From: a virus
DNA: 25,969 nucleotides
Virus record (IMG/VR): IMGVR_UViG_3300037245_000962
Span: 1-25,969 of that record
Strand: one strand, 5' to 3'
The notes beneath the pieces are model-generated. The model saw only the letters and a program-made list of their open reading frames with translations. It had not been told where the DNA came from and did no database searches. Each line of letters begins with the position of its first letter. Position 1 is the first letter of the stretch. Below, in pieces: positions 9,652 through 18,371 of the stretch. The position numbers were made by a program, and so were the translations under genes.

Positions 9652-11001
9652 ATGAATCGAAGACAATCAAATATACTACTGGTTGAACCGCCCTACCGTT
9701 CTGTTTACCTACCTTTGGGTTTACAAAAGATTGCCGCCTATCATTTACAGCGCGGCGACAAAGTAAAGTTTATTCACGAACACCCGAAGAAATTTTTTGC
9801 TATGAGTAAACCCGAAACCTTTAACCGAATTTATATTACTTCTATTTTCACGTATTACGGCAAGACGGTTGTAAGCATAGCAAATTACCTAAAGCGTTTA
9901 TTTCCTAACAGTAGGATAGCTATAGGCGGCGTATTTGCAAGCCTTATGCCTGATTACATAAAGGAAAAAACAGGAATAACCCCGCACGTAGGGCTATACG
10001 ATAAGGTTGAAAACGTAACGCCCGATTACTCTATATTCCCGCGTACAAATCAAGCCCTTATATTTACGTCGCGTGGTTGCGTTCATAACTGCGAGTTTTG
10101 CGCGGTATCTACAATCGTTCCTAATTTTTATATAACTGCTTTCAAGAAGCAAATCGAAGCCGGGTATAATGCCGGGTTTAGACATTTCAATATACAAGAC
10201 AATAACTTTGCGGCCACGCCCTATAGCCACCAAAAGGCCGTAGTTGATTACCTTGCAACCTATGAAGATATTACGGTAGACTTTAATAGCGGTATTGACG
10301 TTAGGGTATTCAGTGAAAAGAAGGCAAAGCTATTAACAAAATTAACTATACCATCTATTCGTTTCGCCTTTGATGCAATGAACGAAGACGGCTACTATCA
10401 AAAGGCTGTAGCAATAGCGCATAAGTACAAAATATATAAAAAGGAAGTCATTAGCTATGTGCTATATAATTTCAATGAGTCATTAGAGGAACTATGGTAT
10501 AGGATGAACGAAGTACTTAAAGCAGGGTCAAGCATATACGCTATGAAGTTCGCGCCGTTAGACGCGCTTAACAAATCATATATAGGCAAACACTGGACCC
10601 GCCGCAAGATAAATAATTTTAAGACAATGCTACAAGCCTATTCGTCTGTAGGCCAGCTTGTAAACCCGCGCGGAATAGACGGCTACAAGAATCGAAAAAT
10701 AGGGCGTACAGCCGAAGAGTTTATAGAAATGATTAGCGGCCACATGGTCGAAAATAATTATTTTTCGGCACTCCGTAGAAGTCCACGCGCGCGTAGTATA
10801 AGTTTCGGCCTAACAGATAGGGCCGAAATGGAAGAGTCAATAAAACGTAACGTAAAGCGCGGCGTATTGCATAAAGACGGCACGCGTAAAGTTAAAGGCA
10901 AGCTAACGCCGGGCCGTGAAATGGGCTACTATCAATCATCAGGAAGCAAGAAGGGTAGACATTTAAAGCGAAAATTAAAACGAAGGGGAAAGAAAAAATG
11001 A
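9652..11001 (+). CDS. Radical SAM protein with B12-binding-like N-domain
   Basis: A 449-aa radical S-adenosylmethionine enzyme. The cluster motif GCVHNCEFC gives Cys143, Cys147 and Cys150 (C-x3-C-x2-C), which would bind a 4Fe-4S cluster. The first 120 residues (NILLVEPPYRS..., ...RIAIGGVFASLMPDY) look like the cobalamin-binding-type domain found in B12-dependent radical SAM methylases, but a DxHxxG cobalamin-ligand motif is not evident. A TIM-barrel-like core follows. The tail is basic and ends with HLKRKLKRRGKKK. The substrate is unknown; a nucleic-acid modification is plausible given the basic tail and replication neighbours. Its stop overlaps the clamp gene start. Confidence 0.85.
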   Translation: MNRRQSNILLVEPPYRSVYLPLGLQKIAAYHLQRGDKVKFIHEHPKKFFAMSKPETFNRIYITSIFTYYGKTVVSIANYLKRLFPNSRIAIGGVFASLMPDYIKEKTGITPHVGLYDKVENVTPDYSIFPRTNQALIFTSRGCVHNCEFCAVSTIVPNFYITAFKKQIEAGYNAGFRHFNIQDNNFAATPYSHQKAVVDYLATYEDITVDFNSGIDVRVFSEKKAKLLTKLTIPSIRFAFDAMNEDGYYQKAVAIAHKYKIYKKEVISYVLYNFNESLEELWYRMNEVLKAGSSIYAMKFAPLDALNKSYIGKHWTRRKINNFKTMLQAYSSVGQLVNPRGIDGYKNRKIGRTAEEFIEMISGHMVENNYFSALRRSPRARSISFGLTDRAEMEESIKRNVKRGVLHKDGTRKVKGKLTPGREMGYYQSSGSKKGRHLKRKLKRRGKKK

Positions 11002-12044
11002 AAATCAAATGTAAAGAACTATTAGATATATTAGATAGGTTAAGCCCTGTAGCAAAGGCAATTAAAATCCGTGAACATATCCCGGCCATTTTGCTACATG
11101 ACAACCAGCTAATAGCGCAAAGCGAAGATTGCTATATATCAATCATGTTAGACCATGACTTTGATAATATAGTAATACCATTTGATAAATCCTACGAACT
11201 ACTTTCACGTATTAGCCCTAAAAAGAAAATCAGCTTGACGCAAGAAGATAATAAGATCAAAGTCATTGCCAGCATAGGCCGAAAGAAAACATCTGCTACT
11301 ATAGCGGCGTTAGCAGAAGTAGGGGACGAAATTAACTACATTGACCCGGTTGACTCTAAATGGCTACCACTACCGCATGATTTTATAGATGCAATAAAGT
11401 TTTGCAAATTTTCCCTACCGCGTGAATCACTTAACCCGGTCTTAATGAATTACGGCATTAACAAAGACGTAGTTATAACGTCGGACGATTTTAGAATAAG
11501 TCATTACACTTTAGATAATACCTTTGAACAAAACCTTGTTATCAGCGCGGCCAGCGGGGACATAATTGTAGCAAACCAATTTGACGAATACATACCTAAA
11601 AAGAAATACATTGACTTTCGTAAAGATGAAATATGGACCCGTGTAACACTGGCAACCATTGACTACCCTGTAATATCTGCAAAAATGTTTAACTATAATA
11701 ATTTTTTCAGTGTTAAAAAGGCTACGCTGATTAAAGCTTTAGACCGCGCGGCCATATTTGCGGAAGGTGAAAGCGAACTTGACTACGTAGTAAATTTACA
11801 TATCGGTTATGAACCAAAACCTAAGTTTACTATATACGCTAAAAATGACTTCGGCAAAATCAATGAAGCCGGGCTTTTAGAAGCATCTAACATTGAAAAA
11901 GATTTATCAGTTAACCCGGTTTATCTATTACAAATTCTAAAAAACATAAAAGAAAATACAATACAAATAGGCGTTGACGAATTTGACCGCTTGATTTTTA
12001 ACGAAGGGCCATATAGTCATATACTGGCAACCTATAAAAAATAA
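10998..12044 (+). CDS. DNA sliding clamp, DnaN-like
   Basis: 348 aa, close to the about 366 of bacterial beta clamps. Recognised from overall pattern rather than one motif: N-terminal LLDILDRLSPVAKAI, repeated beta-rich segments, a late VNPVYLLQILKNI that corresponds to the FNxxYLLDALK segment of DnaN domain 3, and a C-terminal YSHILATYK similar to the DnaN end. It would form a ring that tethers the polymerase to DNA. It starts within the upstream stop (ATGA) and is followed eleven bases later by the clamp loader, which supports the call. Confidence 0.8.
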   Translation: MKIKCKELLDILDRLSPVAKAIKIREHIPAILLHDNQLIAQSEDCYISIMLDHDFDNIVIPFDKSYELLSRISPKKKISLTQEDNKIKVIASIGRKKTSATIAALAEVGDEINYIDPVDSKWLPLPHDFIDAIKFCKFSLPRESLNPVLMNYGINKDVVITSDDFRISHYTLDNTFEQNLVISAASGDIIVANQFDEYIPKKKYIDFRKDEIWTRVTLATIDYPVISAKMFNYNNFFSVKKATLIKALDRAAIFAEGESELDYVVNLHIGYEPKPKFTIYAKNDFGKINEAGLLEASNIEKDLSVNPVYLLQILKNIKENTIQIGVDEFDRLIFNEGPYSHILATYKK

Positions 12045-12055
12045 GGGGTAACGAA

Positions 12056-12991
12056 ATGGCAAGCTTTGATAAGAAGTACAGACCGAAGACCTTTAGAACA
12101 TTTAAAGGAAATGAAGTTACCATACGGCTTTTGAAAAATCATATTGAAGCTATAGACAACTTCCCGTCTACCCTTATGTTTACCGGCCCCAGCGGTTGCG
12201 GTAAGACCACGCTTGCCCGGCTTGTAGCTAAAAACCTAAAGGTAGGCAAAGCGAACATATACGAATTAAACATAGCTGATTCCCGTAAGATCGACGACGC
12301 GCGCGCCATACTGGAAAACCTAAAGTATGCACCTATGCACGGTAGCGGCAAAGTCATTATTCTAAATGAATGTCATAAGGCAAACAATGAATTTCAAAAT
12401 GCTATGTTAGAAAAATTGGAAGAGCCGCCAGCAAATGTCTACTTTATTTTATGCACCACGAACCCCGAAAAACTTTTAACGACAATAAAGACAAGAACTA
12501 CACGGCTTGCAGTTGCCCGGCTTGACCATGAGGAAATGCAAGACTTGATTGACTACGTACTAAAGCGGGAAGGCATAACACTTAACACTAAAGTAAAACG
12601 CAAAGTACTAACCGCGTCGGAAGGCACGCCCCGTAGTGCTTTAATAATGCTTAATAGTTTGGTTACGTTAGATTCTATAGATGAACAAATACAATTTATA
12701 AATGACTTTAATCCGGTTGAAGACCCGCGCGTAAAAGAATTATGTCAAGCCCTGCTAAACGGGGAAAGCGCGGCGGTTACGATTGCAGGGGAACTTGACC
12801 TTGACCCCGAAGACATTAGACGTATGATTTTAGGTTATATGTCTAAAGTCATTCTAAACCCTAAAGCGGCTGGACCCGCGCAAGCTATGGCCGCACATAT
12901 TATAGACAACTTCTTTGAACCGCTATGGAATGTAGGAAAACCGGGGCTTGTGTTTTCCTGCTATAATATAATAGTAGCCTTAAACGATTAA
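12056..12991 (+). CDS. Clamp loader AAA+ ATPase
   Basis: A 311-aa ATPase of the DnaX/RFC-small-subunit type that opens and loads the clamp. Seen: N-terminal KYRPKTF (typical of DnaX/RFC), Walker A GPSGCGKTT (44-52), a Walker B in which the usual Asp is Asn (LNECHK, Asn104-Glu105), sensor 1 CTTNPE, and an arginine-finger region IKTRTTRL where SRC is usual. The catalytic Glu is kept, so ATPase activity is possible. The Shine-Dalgarno is AGGGG just upstream. It is one subunit only; a homo-oligomer or use of host partners is inferred. Confidence 0.9.
   Translation: MASFDKKYRPKTFRTFKGNEVTIRLLKNHIEAIDNFPSTLMFTGPSGCGKTTLARLVAKNLKVGKANIYELNIADSRKIDDARAILENLKYAPMHGSGKVIILNECHKANNEFQNAMLEKLEEPPANVYFILCTTNPEKLLTTIKTRTTRLAVARLDHEEMQDLIDYVLKREGITLNTKVKRKVLTASEGTPRSALIMLNSLVTLDSIDEQIQFINDFNPVEDPRVKELCQALLNGESAAVTIAGELDLDPEDIRRMILGYMSKVILNPKAAGPAQAMAAHIIDNFFEPLWNVGKPGLVFSCYNIIVALND
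12959..12967 (+). promoter_or_regulatory. Possible extended -10 promoter inside clamp loader gene
   Basis: TGCTATAAT (12959-12967) repeats the extended -10 seen at 2790 and 16890. It lies at the 3' end of the clamp loader gene, about 40 bases ahead of the next gene. No -35 is evident. Confidence 0.35.
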
Positions 12992-13332: not shown

Positions 13333-13508
13333 ATCTAAGAATAAGGTATAAATCAAAATATATTTTGCATGACTTTGACCGGCAAGTAATAGAATTTTTT
13401 TCTAAATTCGATTTTAGAATTTTTACTACAACGCATAACGGCGAACAAAGGGCGCTTATATTTACACGCCCTACGCCGTGGCCGAAAGCAGAAATTGACT
13501 ATGAATAA
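13329..13508 (+). CDS. Small 59-aa protein overlapping polymerase start
   Basis: An ATG inside the stop of the previous gene (ATGA) opens a 59-codon frame starting MNLRIRYKSKYILHDF. It ends at a TAA eight bases beyond the polymerase ATG at 13501. It is aromatic and basic with no known motif. The perfect packing between neighbours is the main support. It may chiefly serve to couple translation into the polymerase gene. Confidence 0.6.
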   Translation: MNLRIRYKSKYILHDFDRQVIEFFSKFDFRIFTTTHNGEQRALIFTRPTPWPKAEIDYE

Positions 13509-16500
13509 TTTTTGTCACCTACACGTACATACGGAATATAGTACTTTAGACGGCTTCGGCAAACCCGAAGACTATGCTAAACGCGCTAAGGCATTAGGCC
13601 ATAAGTATTTAGCCTGTACGGACCACGGCAACATAGACGGCCTAATAAAATTTCAAAAGGCTTGCGAAGCTGTAGATATTATTCCTATACACGGTTGCGA
13701 AGTTTACCTAACGCCCGAAGTTAATAAGGAAAGAAAAAACGGCCATTGTCTTTTACTCATAAAAAATTCAAGGGGCTTTCGCAACCTATGTAAAATGCTT
13801 TCCTTTGCAAATATGGAAGGGTTTTACTATAAGCCGCGCATTACCTACCAAATGCTTATTGATAATTGTAAAGGGCTGGTAGTATCAACGGCTTGCCTAC
13901 AAAGCTTTATCTATATGGAATGCGGCGAAATTTTATGGCAATCCCTTAACGACATTATAGGCGACGATTTATATTTTGAAATCATGCCATTACAGGGTAA
14001 GCAATTTGTAAAGCATAACAAAAATATAGTTAGGTTAGCAAAAAAATTTAATAAGAAAATAATTGCTACAAACGATTGCCACTATATAAACCGGGACGAA
14101 TGGAAAGCGCAAGAAGTCCTTTTAGCCATACAGAGCAAAGCAAAATGGAAAGACGAAAACCGATTTAAGTTTAGTACAAAAGGGCTTTACCTAAGATCGG
14201 CCAGCGAAATGAAAAAATATTTAATGGCGGGTCCGTATAAGTATAGTAATTCATGGTTGACAAATACAATAGAGATAGCCGAAAAATGTAGCAAGTTTAG
14301 AATAAAGCCCCGGCCTGTACGGTTGCCAGCCTTTGAAAATCTTAAGCCGGAATTTGAAGCTAAGGCATTAAGGCACTTATGTTACGTAGGCTTTAAACGC
14401 TTGTTTGGTAATGACCTACGCAAAAACCCCAAATACTATAAGCGATTTTTAGAAGAGTTTAGGCTTATCAATAAAAAGAAATTTATTAGATATTTCCTTA
14501 TAGTCAAAGAGTTAGTCGAATGGTGCAAAGATAATGAAATCATGGTAGGGCCGGGGCGTGGTTCTGTAGGCGGTAGCCTAATTGCCTACCTACTGGGAAT
14601 TACTACAATAGACCCGCTTAAGTTTGGTTTGATATTTAGCCGATTCATAGCCGAAGACCGTATAGATTACCCGGATATAGACATAGACTTTGAACCAGAG
14701 AAGCGCGACCTAATTAGGCAACATTTAGAAGACCAATACGGCGAAGGTAATATAGCCGCCGTTTCAACTTTTAACCGTATGAAGTCAAGGGCGGTAGTGC
14801 GCGACGTATCAAGGGTATTTGATATAGACATAGCAGAAGTAAACCAAGTAACTAAGTTAATTGACCCGCAAGCCGAAGACGGTATCCAGCAAGCTATTGA
14901 CGAACACGACGAAGCGCGGGACTTTGCAGATTCCTACCCGCAAGTAATCAAGCTTGCTAAAAAATTGGAAGGCCAAATACGCGCCAAAAGCCAGCACGCG
15001 GCGGGGCTTATCGTTAGTAGACAAAGGCTTGATAAGTCAAACCGTTGTAACCTTATAGAACGCGACGGGACCACTTTAATTAACTGGGAAATGACCGACG
15101 CGGAATTTGTAGGGTTAATGAAGTTAGACATACTTGCCATAAACCTAATATCTATATTAGCCGAAACAAAACGGTTAGTAAAAGAAAATAAGAATATAGT
15201 AATTGAGTTTGAAAAAATCCCTTTAGATGATAATAAGGTATTAAAGGAAATAGGCAAGGGTAACAATGTAGGGCTATTCCAGCTTAACGCATGGGCTACT
15301 AATAATGTCATAAAGGAAATAGGCGCGGAAAACTTTATGCAAATTCCTATAGCTACCGCCCTATCAAGACCCGGCCCGGCTAATTCTGGAATGACCGACG
15401 AATTTATAAAACGCAAAAGGTCTAAACGCTGGGACCGCAAGCACGAAATATTTGAAGACATTTGCAAAGATACTTACGGCGTTATCGTTTATCAAGAGCA
15501 AGTAATGAACGTTATACATAAAATCGCCGGGCTACCTTATAGTACAGCCGATAAAATACGAAAGGTCATAGGCAAGAAGCGCGACGCTAAAGAGTTTGCC
15601 CCGTACAAGAAGCAATTCATTAAAGGTTGTCTACAGCAAGGTTACTTTGACCGGGACGAAGCTAACGACTTTTGGGTTATGCTACAGGAACACGCAAGCT
15701 ACAGCTTTAATCTTGCACATAGCGTAGCCTATGGAATGTTAGGCTACTGGACCGGCTACCTAAAGTTTTACTACCCTACTGAATTTATTTGCGCGTCCCT
15801 TACTTATGGGGCTAAAGAAAAAAAAGCTGAAATGGTCGAAGAGTCTTACCGCTTAGGGCTAACCCTTGTGCCGCCGCGAATAATAGGCGGTTACACGAAG
15901 GCTAATCAATGGATAGCTAAAAACAAAAATCTATATATACCATTTACAGAAGTAAAAGGCATAGGCGAAAAGCGCGCGCAAGAAGCAATTAAGCTTTCAA
16001 CCGACAAGCGCCGTTTACCTACATTCTTTACGGACCCTGTAAAAGAAAAAAAATACGAAAGTAAATTTGAAGAAATGTTAGATACTATAGGGGCGTTTCG
16101 TGATAATGATAATATAGAGGTAACGCCCACGCTTAAAGAATTTTTCGATTTTCGTTTGACTACAAACCCACGCGATACCTACCCGAACCTTTTTAAATTA
16201 TTCGGCCATATTAGATTAACCGACCTTGACGGCTTACTACAAGGCGACATTAGGACCGTTAGGCGAATGATTAAAAATAAAAAGGTAGTCAAAGTAGTAA
16301 AGTTTCGACGGTTTGAAAGGTTTGTAGATCGACTTTTTGAATGTCAAAAATGCAAGCTACGTTCTGAATGTAGCGAACCTGTACCGCCGTCAATAGGCCG
16401 CTATAATATTTCAATGGTAGGCGAAGCGCCGGGCTTTGAGGAAGACCGGGAAGGCCGGGGGTTTTATGAGCAAGCGCGTGCCGGGTCTAAGCTATGGGAA

Positions 16501-16881
16501 GATATAACTAAGGCGGGTTACTACAGAGAACAATTTCACATAAGTAATTTTAACAAGTGCTACCCGTCCGTATCACGAAACCCCGGCGTAACCGAAATAA
16601 AAAAATGTACTCATTGGATGAACATAGAATTTAAAAGAGTAAAGCCGATTTTAATTTTAGCCTTTGGTAATTCGGGTATGCAATTTTTTCAAGGCAAAAA
16701 AACGGGTATTACTCAAATGTCTGGAAAAGTCGAATGGAATGACCTTTATAAAAGCTGGGTTTGCTACTGCTTGCACCCGGCGGCGGTCCTACATAACCCC
16801 GACAATTTGACCTATTATAAAGCTGGTATGAAAGCCTTTTTTAAATTCCTACAAGTCATAGCCGGGCCGAAATTGCGATAG
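13501..16881 (+). CDS. DnaE-type polymerase III alpha fused to family-4-like UDG
   Basis: 1126 aa. The ATG at 13501 is preferred to a TTG two codons earlier. An intact PHP domain starts with HLHVHTEYS. The C-family palm has PGRGSVGGS (351 on), PDIDIDF (391-397) and a third aspartate in MKLDIL (Asp543), then LSRPGP and VYQEQVM fingers motifs and a helix-hairpin-helix (KGIGEKRAQ, about 819). From about 940 the usual OB-fold and tau-binding ends are replaced by a uracil-DNA-glycosylase-like domain. It has Cys948, Cys951, Cys1020 and Cys1036 for a 4Fe-4S cluster, GEAPG (974-978) and HPAA (1092-1095). It is the main replicative polymerase. The PHP domain may proofread. Confidence 0.92.
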   Translation: MNNFCHLHVHTEYSTLDGFGKPEDYAKRAKALGHKYLACTDHGNIDGLIKFQKACEAVDIIPIHGCEVYLTPEVNKERKNGHCLLLIKNSRGFRNLCKMLSFANMEGFYYKPRITYQMLIDNCKGLVVSTACLQSFIYMECGEILWQSLNDIIGDDLYFEIMPLQGKQFVKHNKNIVRLAKKFNKKIIATNDCHYINRDEWKAQEVLLAIQSKAKWKDENRFKFSTKGLYLRSASEMKKYLMAGPYKYSNSWLTNTIEIAEKCSKFRIKPRPVRLPAFENLKPEFEAKALRHLCYVGFKRLFGNDLRKNPKYYKRFLEEFRLINKKKFIRYFLIVKELVEWCKDNEIMVGPGRGSVGGSLIAYLLGITTIDPLKFGLIFSRFIAEDRIDYPDIDIDFEPEKRDLIRQHLEDQYGEGNIAAVSTFNRMKSRAVVRDVSRVFDIDIAEVNQVTKLIDPQAEDGIQQAIDEHDEARDFADSYPQVIKLAKKLEGQIRAKSQHAAGLIVSRQRLDKSNRCNLIERDGTTLINWEMTDAEFVGLMKLDILAINLISILAETKRLVKENKNIVIEFEKIPLDDNKVLKEIGKGNNVGLFQLNAWATNNVIKEIGAENFMQIPIATALSRPGPANSGMTDEFIKRKRSKRWDRKHEIFEDICKDTYGVIVYQEQVMNVIHKIAGLPYSTADKIRKVIGKKRDAKEFAPYKKQFIKGCLQQGYFDRDEANDFWVMLQEHASYSFNLAHSVAYGMLGYWTGYLKFYYPTEFICASLTYGAKEKKAEMVEESYRLGLTLVPPRIIGGYTKANQWIAKNKNLYIPFTEVKGIGEKRAQEAIKLSTDKRRLPTFFTDPVKEKKYESKFEEMLDTIGAFRDNDNIEVTPTLKEFFDFRLTTNPRDTYPNLFKLFGHIRLTDLDGLLQGDIRTVRRMIKNKKVVKVVKFRRFERFVDRLFECQKCKLRSECSEPVPPSIGRYNISMVGEAPGFEEDREGRGFYEQARAGSKLWEDITKAGYYREQFHISNFNKCYPSVSRNPGVTEIKKCTHWMNIEFKRVKPILILAFGNSGMQFFQGKKTGITQMSGKVEWNDLYKSWVCYCLHPAAVLHNPDNLTYYKAGMKAFFKFLQVIAGPKLR

Positions 16882-16915: not shown

Positions 16916-17110
16916 ATGTTAGAAAACTTTTTCAAATATCTATTCCTTATAATCGTAGGCGCGGTAGGGCTTTACGTGCTTACGCGTCTAATAAGCTATG
17001 CCTTTGCGAAGTCATGGTATCAAGTAAAAAATCAACATACAGAAATGGAGGGTTTTAACAATGGCAAGAAAAAGACGAACAATCAAACGAAGCAATCAAA
17101 CGACAAGTAA
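16916..17110 (+). CDS. Small single-pass membrane protein
   Basis: 64 aa with one clear membrane helix (about residues 5-30, FFKYLFLIIVGAVGLYVL) and a polar, Lys/Asn-rich tail. It has its own promoter and Shine-Dalgarno. Its last 50 bases overlap the start of the SSB gene in another frame. It might anchor replication proteins to the membrane, or be unrelated to replication. No family recognised. Confidence 0.6.
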   Translation: MLENFFKYLFLIIVGAVGLYVLTRLISYAFAKSWYQVKNQHTEMEGFNNGKKKTNNQTKQSNDK

Positions 17111-18371
17111 AAGAAGGGATAGGAAAAGTAGTAAACCTTCGTCAAGGGAAACAGGCCGCCGAAGTAGTAAACGCACAAGCCGCCGCAAATCAAGCCGCGC
17201 CAGCGAAGGCAATTCCTTATTAAAGCGAATTAAAAAAGGTCAGCAAAGAGTAACGACCGCCCGTAGCATTATAAAGTCAATCGACAATATACAGTTATGG
17301 CGACCACGTGACGGCCAGCATATTATAGATATTGTTCCCTACAATGCCGGGCCTAATGACGGGCTGGAAAAAGAAGGCGACGAAACATATACCTATGAAG
17401 CGTGGGTACATAGGGGCGTGGGGCCGAATGAGCAAATGCATATTTGCCCGGCTGAAACCTATAACGAAGATTGTCCTATATGTGAACATAGACAAACGCT
17501 AAGGGAACGCGGGGCCGACGATAAAATATGGAAATCCTTATTTCCTAAGCGTCGTAATATCTACAATATCTTATGTTATGATGCAAACGAAGAACGCAAG
17601 GGCATTCAAGTTTGGGAAGTCCCGTACTTCTACGCGGAAAAAAATATTTTGGCTATTGCCAGCGAACCCCAGCGCGGCGGCGGGTCCGATACAATAAACT
17701 TTCCTCACGCCGAACATGGCAAAAGTATTTCCTTTACTATAGAACCGCCCCAAAGCAAAGAAGATTTTGCAAGCTATGTAGGCTTTAAATTTCTTGACCG
17801 TGACTATGCTATAGAGGATGAAATTTTAGATGAAGCCCATACGCTTGACGAATTAGTTTTACTTCTTGCCTATGACGAATTATCAGAAATTTACTACGGC
17901 GGTAAATCAGCAGAAGAAAAAACGGATGAAGATTTGGGCGGTAGCCGTAAACGCGGACGGGGCGGACGTTCCCGAAAGAAACGAGAACCCGAACCCAAAG
18001 ACAAAGAGGAAGGGCCGTCAACGGAAGACCTTATGGATGAATTGGAAGAGTGCGAAGACCTTGACGACCTTGAAGAGTTTGCCGAAAATTATGACTTCGA
18101 TATTAAAATAACTAATAAGTCAAACGTTCGTAAAGTCAAACGGGAATTTGAAGGGTTGATAATGGAAGAGGAAGGCGAAGAGGAACCCGAAGAAGGCGAA
18201 GCGGAAGGCGAAGAGGAAGGCGAATACGCCTACGGCGATATTATCAAAATGAAGCGCCGCCAGCTAAAGAAGTTAATCGAAAGCGAAGACCTTGACGTAG
18301 ATATTGACGACGCGGAAGACCTTGACGACTTGCGACAAATGGTAGCTGAAGAATTAGATATTCCAGTGTAA
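17061..18371 (+). CDS. gp32-like single-stranded DNA-binding protein
   Basis: A 436-aa candidate ssDNA-binding protein. The ATG at 17061 has GGAGGG eight bases upstream. The order is: an Arg/Lys/Ser-rich N-terminus of about 50 residues with RRTIKR; a beta-rich core with a gp32-like zinc site around His127, Cys129, Cys138, Cys141 and His143 (CPICEH); a basic linker near 300; and an acidic C-terminal third. Acidic tails are usual in SSBs and recruit partner proteins. Here the tail contains two HeH-like modules (about 322-366 and 391-433) shared with the 8643 protein. It would coat single strands for replication and recombination. Much longer than T4 gp32 (301 aa) because of both tails. Confidence 0.8.
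   Translation: MARKRRTIKRSNQTTSKRRDRKSSKPSSRETGRRSSKRTSRRKSSRASEGNSLLKRIKKGQQRVTTARSIIKSIDNIQLWRPRDGQHIIDIVPYNAGPNDGLEKEGDETYTYEAWVHRGVGPNEQMHICPAETYNEDCPICEHRQTLRERGADDKIWKSLFPKRRNIYNILCYDANEERKGIQVWEVPYFYAEKNILAIASEPQRGGGSDTINFPHAEHGKSISFTIEPPQSKEDFASYVGFKFLDRDYAIEDEILDEAHTLDELVLLLAYDELSEIYYGGKSAEEKTDEDLGGSRKRGRGGRSRKKREPEPKDKEEGPSTEDLMDELEECEDLDDLEEFAENYDFDIKITNKSNVRKVKREFEGLIMEEEGEEEPEEGEAEGEEEGEYAYGDIIKMKRRQLKKLIESEDLDVDIDDAEDLDDLRQMVAEELDIPV

What the first reader, a model, noticed from the sequence alone, without database searches (positions are those of the whole stretch)
16320..16881. Replicative DnaE-type polymerase ends in a uracil-DNA-glycosylase-like domain
Seen: after the helix-hairpin-helix of a complete PHP + C-family polymerase, the OB-fold and tau-binding tail are replaced by a domain with Cys948-x2-Cys951, Cys1020-x15-Cys1036, GEAPG and HPAA. 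These are the order and motifs of family 4 UDG with its 4Fe-4S cluster, and the Cys spacing agrees with what I recall for the thermophile enzymes. UDG-like domains fused to A-family phage polymerases (SPO1 type) are known, but I do not recall one on a DnaE polymerase. A fused UDG could sense uracil in the template ahead of the polymerase, as archaeal polymerases do with a pocket, or excise it.
Basis: partly seen in the sequence, partly recalled or inferred. Interest (0 to 1): 0.85.

Follow-up and report, generated by a model that had tools for sequence, protein, structure and literature searches.

The report
Phage replicase with built-in uracil-DNA glycosylase
A phage copies its DNA with a bacterial-type polymerase whose tail has been replaced by an apparently working uracil-removing repair domain; this layout was first reported in 2014 in a degenerate form, but here it defines a large uncultured phage family that keeps the iron-sulphur site and usually the active site.

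Summary
ORF 13495-16881 (1128 aa) is one intact C-family replicase (PHP + DnaE core + HhH) that ends in a family-4-type uracil-DNA glycosylase domain (Pfam E 7e-16; Thermus UDGa E 9e-19; isolated-domain model pLDDT 96, TM up to 0.87 to solved family-4 enzymes). It is not an artefact: 38 non-redundant metagenomic phage contigs carry the same fusion in one frame (polymerases 41-59% identical to this one). All 37 scorable domains keep the four cluster cysteines; 28 keep a complete active site; five carry the Gln-Asp motif-1 doublet known to preserve activity in Thermus UDGa; all lack the motif-3 water-positioning Asn. In 13 of 14 large records the fused domain is the virus's only UDG; none has a PF00692 dUTPase.

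The architecture is not new: Timinskas et al. (2014) reported DnaE with OB+CTD replaced by PF03167; I find it in SSU5-type phages, where the UDG has lost its catalytic residues and cluster. The window belongs to a distinct lineage with the site intact: a new variant of a known kind. Most likely it is a fork-tethered uracil scanner/excisor that also serves as a DNA-binding tail. Function is untested.

The parts
13495..16881 (+). DnaE-type replicase fused to UDG, 1128 aa (TTG; ATG at 13501)
   Evidence: single-frame relatives
13516..13914 (+). PHP domain, residues 8-140; the nine metal-site residues H10 H12 D19 H44 E69 H84 C134 D194 H196 (the last two beyond the Pfam stretch) are invariant in 34/34 members, so proofreading is predicted
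14365..15138 (+). C-family polymerase core (PF07733); D394, D396 and D545 invariant 34/34
15151..15642 (+). finger domain PF17657, residues 553-716
15643..16104 (+). post-finger region with HhH (KGIGEKRA, residues 821-828)
   Evidence: assignment by homology to DnaE, Pfam HHH_6 found in only 2 of 34 members
16015..16029 (+). candidate clamp-binding motif LPTFF (841-845) in a disordered loop just after HhH; F844 and F845 each in 30/34
   Evidence: low pLDDT 840-851; function inferred
16105..16329 (+). poorly conserved linker (mean 26% identity to window)
16330..16854 (+). family-4-type UDG domain, residues 946-1120
16342..16353 (+). Cys950-x2-Cys953, first pair of cluster ligands
   Evidence: 37/37 members
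16420..16434 (+). motif 1 GEAPG (976-980)
16546..16548 (+). Asn1018 = uracil-reading N80 of Thermus UDGa
   Evidence: PMC5387724
16558..16560 (+). Cys1022, cluster ligand
   Evidence: 37/37
16573..16575 (+). Ser1027 at the place of water-positioning N89 of Thermus UDGa; never Asn in the lineage
16606..16608 (+). Cys1038, cluster ligand
   Evidence: 37/37
16774..16785 (+). motif 2 HPAA (1094-1097); His1094 = catalytic H155 of Thermus UDGa
10998..12044 (+). phage sliding clamp (DNA_pol3_beta-like, weak Pfam match)
12056..12991 (+). phage clamp loader (AAA, phrog_5846 E 6e-56)
17061..18371 (+). gp32-like single-strand binding protein

Best explanation
This is the phage's own replicative C-family polymerase, in which the OB and tau-binding tail was replaced by a family-4-type, probably 4Fe-4S UDG domain. 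It probably works with the phage's own clamp and loader, encoded just upstream, through the [I/L]xxFF motif after HhH, so it does not need the host's tau contact. The UDG tail binds DNA at the fork, recognises uracil and, in most members including this one, can excise it, although probably more slowly than classical family-4 enzymes because the water-positioning Asn is gone. Shown: the fusion, its conservation, the domain folds by prediction, the conserved active-site residues and cysteines, and that the fused domain is usually the virus's only UDG. Inferred: the cluster itself, glycosylase activity, clamp binding, and whether the main benefit is removal of uracil from DNA at the fork or uracil-sensitive DNA binding.
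For: Fusion real and conserved. Fold and domain identity. Conserved active site: 28 of 37 keep Cys4 + motif-1 doublet + E47/F54/N80/H155 equivalents. Natural EA-to-QD double change in 5 members with no clean single-step intermediate; in Thermus UDGa that double change costs 5-fold while the single changes cost 888- and 89-fold. UDG under the same purifying selection as the polymerase in a close pair, dN/dS about 0.10 against 0.11. Only UDG in 13 of 14 large records; PF00692 dUTPase in 0 of 14. Own clamp, loader, SSB and RecA-like genes around it. PHP and polymerase catalytic residues invariant.
Against: Motif-3 Asn replaced in all 37 members, and 9 of 37 have a damaged catalytic set while keeping all four cysteines, so catalysis is not what is most strictly kept. 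Score below NCBI's family-4 cut-off. Four members of the clade lack the fused UDG, and no UDG was found in two of their records, which are fragments, so it is not indispensable. No biochemistry exists.
Confidence: 0.58

Rival explanations
1. The UDG fold is mainly a structural DNA-binding or processivity tail, as poxvirus D4 is for its polymerase; uracil chemistry is a dispensable leftover that is decaying at different speeds in different branches.
For: Four cysteines kept in 37/37 even where motifs 1 or 2 are wrecked (L033, L088, L098, L046); SSU5-type phages keep the fold with cysteines and catalytic residues mostly lost; it sits where OB+CTD normally sit; vaccinia D4 gives processivity without glycosylase activity (PMC3946371; PMC10253040).
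Against: 28/37 still hold the full active-site set; the QD doublet is hard to explain without selection on chemistry; the viruses encode a normal clamp and loader.
Confidence: 0.27
2. The domain is a read-ahead uracil sensor: it binds template uracil and stalls the polymerase, as archaeal B-family polymerases do with a pocket, without excising it.
For: Loss of the water-positioning Asn in all members with retention of the uracil-reading Asn and His in most; in Thermus UDGa N89A leaves Km almost unchanged and lowers turnover 6- to 9-fold.
Against: N89A still excises; most of the remaining catalytic apparatus is kept; a pure sensor would not need His155.
Confidence: 0.12
3. Assembly or frameshift artefact joining two genes.
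For: None found.
Against: 38 other single-frame fusions from separate metagenome contigs; one clade in both the polymerase and UDG trees.
Confidence: 0.01

Closest known systems
DnaE with OB+CTD replaced by PF03167 (Timinskas et al. 2014, PMC3919608); SSU5-type phages (SSU5, PhiR41_1, ANB28, nickie, RHph_N1_10)
   Same: Same order PHP-Pol3-HhH-UDG, OB and CTD gone; phage replicase
   Different: Their UDG has lost the catalytic Glu, Asn and His and most or all cluster cysteines; polymerase only 26-28% identical; different clade (100 SH-aLRT) in the core tree
Family-4 UDG (Thermus UDGa 1ui0, TM0511, Sulfolobus 4zbx)
   Same: Fold (TM up to 0.87), four Cys in order, GEAPG, uracil-reading Asn, HPxx
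   Different: Fused to a replicase; motif-3 Asn is Ser/Thr/Ile; new conserved Asn1059; below the TIGR00758 cut-off
UDG-A-family polymerase fusions (PaBG and related; PMBT14, MW202455)
   Same: UDG-superfamily domain on a phage polymerase (PMC7412058)
   Different: A-family polymerase, UDG at the N-terminus
Poxvirus E9-A20-D4 holoenzyme
   Same: UDG as part of the viral replicase
   Different: Separate subunits, non-homologous polymerase, D4 a divergent UDG of another family; no sliding clamp
UdgX
   Same: Family-4-like fold
   Different: GEQPG motif and KRRIH loop absent here; 72.5 bits against a cut-off of 190

Membership tests
C-family DNA polymerase, DnaE type | PHP + Pol3 core + finger domains in order | tested here: met
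   (TIGR00594 746 bits, cut-off 434)
C-family DNA polymerase, DnaE type | Catalytic Asp triad | tested here: met
   D394, D396, D545 in 34/34
C-family DNA polymerase, DnaE type | C-terminal OB fold and tau-binding CTD (usual, not universal) | tested here: not met
   no Pfam hit; the region is UDG
PHP proofreader | Nine-residue metal site HHDHEH[C/H]DH | tested here: met
   34/34; criterion from PMC12926913
Family-4 UDG | PF03167 fold | tested here: met
Family-4 UDG | Four Cys ligands | tested here: met
   37/37
Family-4 UDG | Bound 4Fe-4S cluster | not testable with these tools
   needs spectroscopy
Family-4 UDG | Motif 1 GE(A/G)PG and motif 2 HP | tested here: met
   GEAPG and HPAA in the window
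Family-4 UDG | Motif 3 Asn (N89) | tested here: not met
   Ser1027; 0/37 Asn against 42/43 in free family-4
Family-4 UDG | Score over the curated TIGR00758 cut-off | tested here: not met
   87.6 against 125.3 bits
Family-4 UDG | Uracil excision | not testable with these tools
   no assay
UdgX | GEQPG and KRRIH loop | tested here: not met
   GEAPG; no such loop
DnaE-UDG architecture of Timinskas 2014 | OB+CTD replaced by PF03167 on a C-family core | tested here: met
SSU5-type DnaE-UDG lineage | Polymerase groups in that clade | tested here: not met
   separate 100% clade; joint origin not rejected, AU p 0.64

The most novel reading that the evidence does not exclude
A replicative C-family polymerase carries a cluster-dependent uracil checkpoint in cis: the Fe-S domain tracks DNA at the fork, and the cluster is kept even where base chemistry is lost, because cluster-dependent DNA binding or damage signalling, and not excision, is the core function. 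The lineage would hold a natural series from active to dead forms of the same fused domain.
Probability: 0.25. Interest if true: 0.82.

Novelty: new variant of a known kind. Interest (0 to 1): 0.57.

Why it matters
Poxviruses, A-family phage polymerases and two groups of DnaE phage replicases have all attached a UDG fold to a replicase. Of the two DnaE groups examined here, the window lineage is the one with an intact cluster site and active site, and it offers dozens of natural variants. It therefore lets one test directly whether such a domain serves processivity, uracil sensing or repair at the fork. It also gives natural examples of the Glu-Ala to Gln-Asp active-site switch, previously made in the laboratory.

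Tried and rejected
Frameshift or misassembly: rejected. UdgX-type cross-linking glycosylase: rejected on motifs and score. A first-seen fusion: rejected after finding Timinskas 2014. Single or double origin of the two DnaE-UDG lineages: unresolved (AU p 0.64; UDG tree grouping support only 80). Close-relative search of viral contigs with the full protein failed because the degenerate patterns were too specific; an alignment query worked. Terminase search with one Pfam model was positive in only 3 of 14 records. Kazlauskas and Venclovas 2011 (NAR) on viral replicases is not held, so an earlier mention of a phage DnaE-UDG there could not be checked.

Full report
WHAT IS THERE. The window is a 25,969-base virus record, a fragment of an uncultured phage. 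ORF 13495-16881 encodes 1128 aa from a TTG, or 1126 from the ATG at 13501. It carries PHP, the C-family polymerase core, the finger domain and, after the HhH region and a variable linker, a UDG-superfamily domain; no OB or tau-binding domain is detected. The closest solved relatives of the tail are family-4 enzymes. AlphaFold2 with 34 family members gives mean pLDDT 88 for the full chain and about 88-95 over most of the UDG. The isolated domain, with fused and free family-4 sequences, gives pLDDT 96 and matches 1l9g, 1ui1 and 4zby with TM 0.81-0.87. The full-length model matches DnaE first and family-4 UDG separately. pTM is 0.73, so the placement of the domains relative to each other should not be trusted.

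SURROUNDINGS. The gene sits in a replication module: SF2 helicase, primase-like protein, DnaB-like helicase, sliding clamp, clamp loader, this polymerase, gp32-like SSB, UvsX/RecA-like protein, 5'-3' exonuclease, and SbcC- and SbcD-like proteins. Right after HhH lies a disordered loop with [I/L]xxFF or GFF; both Phe are kept in 30 of 34 members each. I take it as the clamp-binding motif (inference from its position and form). The nine PHP metal ligands and the polymerase Asp triad are invariant in 34 of 34.

THE FAMILY. An alignment query found 80 viral loci. Forty-two hold polymerase and UDG in one frame, 38 after removing duplicates. Their polymerases are 41-59% identical to the window's; phage polymerases at about 36% or less lack the fused window-type UDG, so the trait follows descent. 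In the core tree the fused forms, together with four members without UDG, form one clade (SH-aLRT 100); the UDG domains also form one clade (98). This argues for one fusion at the base of the lineage, followed by losses or separations in two places on the tree. In one such virus (L051) the polymerase ends after HhH and a separate UDG gene, with cysteines, GEAPA and HPS, lies about 5 kb away. In 13 of 14 large records the fused domain is the only PF03167 match; of 18 polymerase relatives outside the clade, four have a free UDG. None of the 14 records has a PF00692 dUTPase, which fits a need to deal with uracil, although other dUTPase families were not tested and the records may be incomplete.

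THE ACTIVE SITE. I mapped residues on Thermus UDGa through the alignments and the published mutants (PMC5387724). All 37 scorable members keep the four cysteines. Twenty-eight keep the complete set of cysteines, motif-1 doublet and the E47, F54, N80 and H155 equivalents. The doublet is Glu-Ala in 27, Gln-Asp in 5 and Glu-Gly in 2; the other three have damaged motifs. In Thermus UDGa E41Q and G42D alone cost 888- and 89-fold, together only 5-fold, so the natural double change argues for selection on chemistry. Against that, the motif-3 Asn (N89), present in 42 of 43 free family-4 proteins here, is Ser, Thr or Ile in nearly all members and Asn in none. In Thermus N89A loses roughly 6- to 9-fold in turnover with little change in Km, so slower excision, not inactivity, is expected. 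In the close pair L019/L020 dN/dS is about 0.10 in the UDG and 0.11 in the polymerase. In L037/L038, where L037 has a damaged motif 1, the UDG changes almost three times as fast as the polymerase.

WHAT IS ALREADY KNOWN. Timinskas et al. (PMC3919608) described in 2014 a C-family polymerase in some Yersinia pestis and Salmonella enterica strains in which OB and CTD are replaced by a PF03167 domain. I infer this is the SSU5-type phage-plasmid polymerase. I did not fetch the Yersinia plasmid, and used phages SSU5, PhiR41_1, ANB28, nickie and RHph_N1_10 instead. All five have a UDG-like tail, but motif 1 is lost, the motif-2 His is Asn, and the cysteines are missing apart from one CxxC in nickie. 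These UDGs should be inactive and without cluster. The data do not reject a common origin of the two fused lineages (AU p 0.64). UDG domains on A-family phage polymerases are also known (PMC7412058).

MECHANISM. My preferred reading is a fork-tethered glycosylase that also acts as the DNA-binding tail of the polymerase. The active-site evidence favours real uracil chemistry in most members. The stricter conservation of the cysteines, and the dead forms elsewhere, favour an additional role of the folded domain as in poxvirus D4, whose glycosylase activity is dispensable for replication. Read-ahead stalling remains possible and is compatible with slow turnover. None of these has been tested.

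VERDICT. Observation confirmed. The idea of a first DnaE-UDG fusion is wrong, but the window belongs to a separate, large, uncultured lineage in which the UDG is largely intact: a new variant of a known kind.

Noticed in passing
L039, L057, L058, L059, L064 (polymerase ORFs of 1194-1556 aa): Large in-frame insertions, probably inteins, in the polymerase core; in L039 the insertion lies inside the UDG domain at motif 1 and ends in an intein-like VHN|S.
   Followed up: partly
L042, L043, L045, L054 C-termini; SSB ORFs at L049:3486-4625 and L051:8613-9818: A small Cys-rich tail (CPYGGxF..NNxYxECxxCxxWxxCA) after the UDG is shared with the C-terminus of the gp32-like SSB in L049 and L051, perhaps a common docking module.
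   Followed up: partly
L019, L020, L023, L024, L025 UDG motif 1: Natural GQDPG motif, a family-1-like Gln-Asp doublet on a family-4 scaffold.
   Followed up: yes
L056:321-3669: The polymerase is split over several frames and the UDG is in a separate frame, either a decayed gene or an error-rich assembly; UDG about 93% identical to L034.
   Followed up: no
window 9652-11001: Radical-SAM protein with a weak B12-binding match, encoded directly upstream of the clamp gene in the replication module.
   Followed up: no
UDG position 1059 (window 16669-16671): Asn1059 (GN after the fourth strand) is nearly invariant in the fused lineage but Ala/Arg/Ser/Lys in free family-4 UDG; possible compensation for the lost motif-3 Asn.
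   Followed up: no
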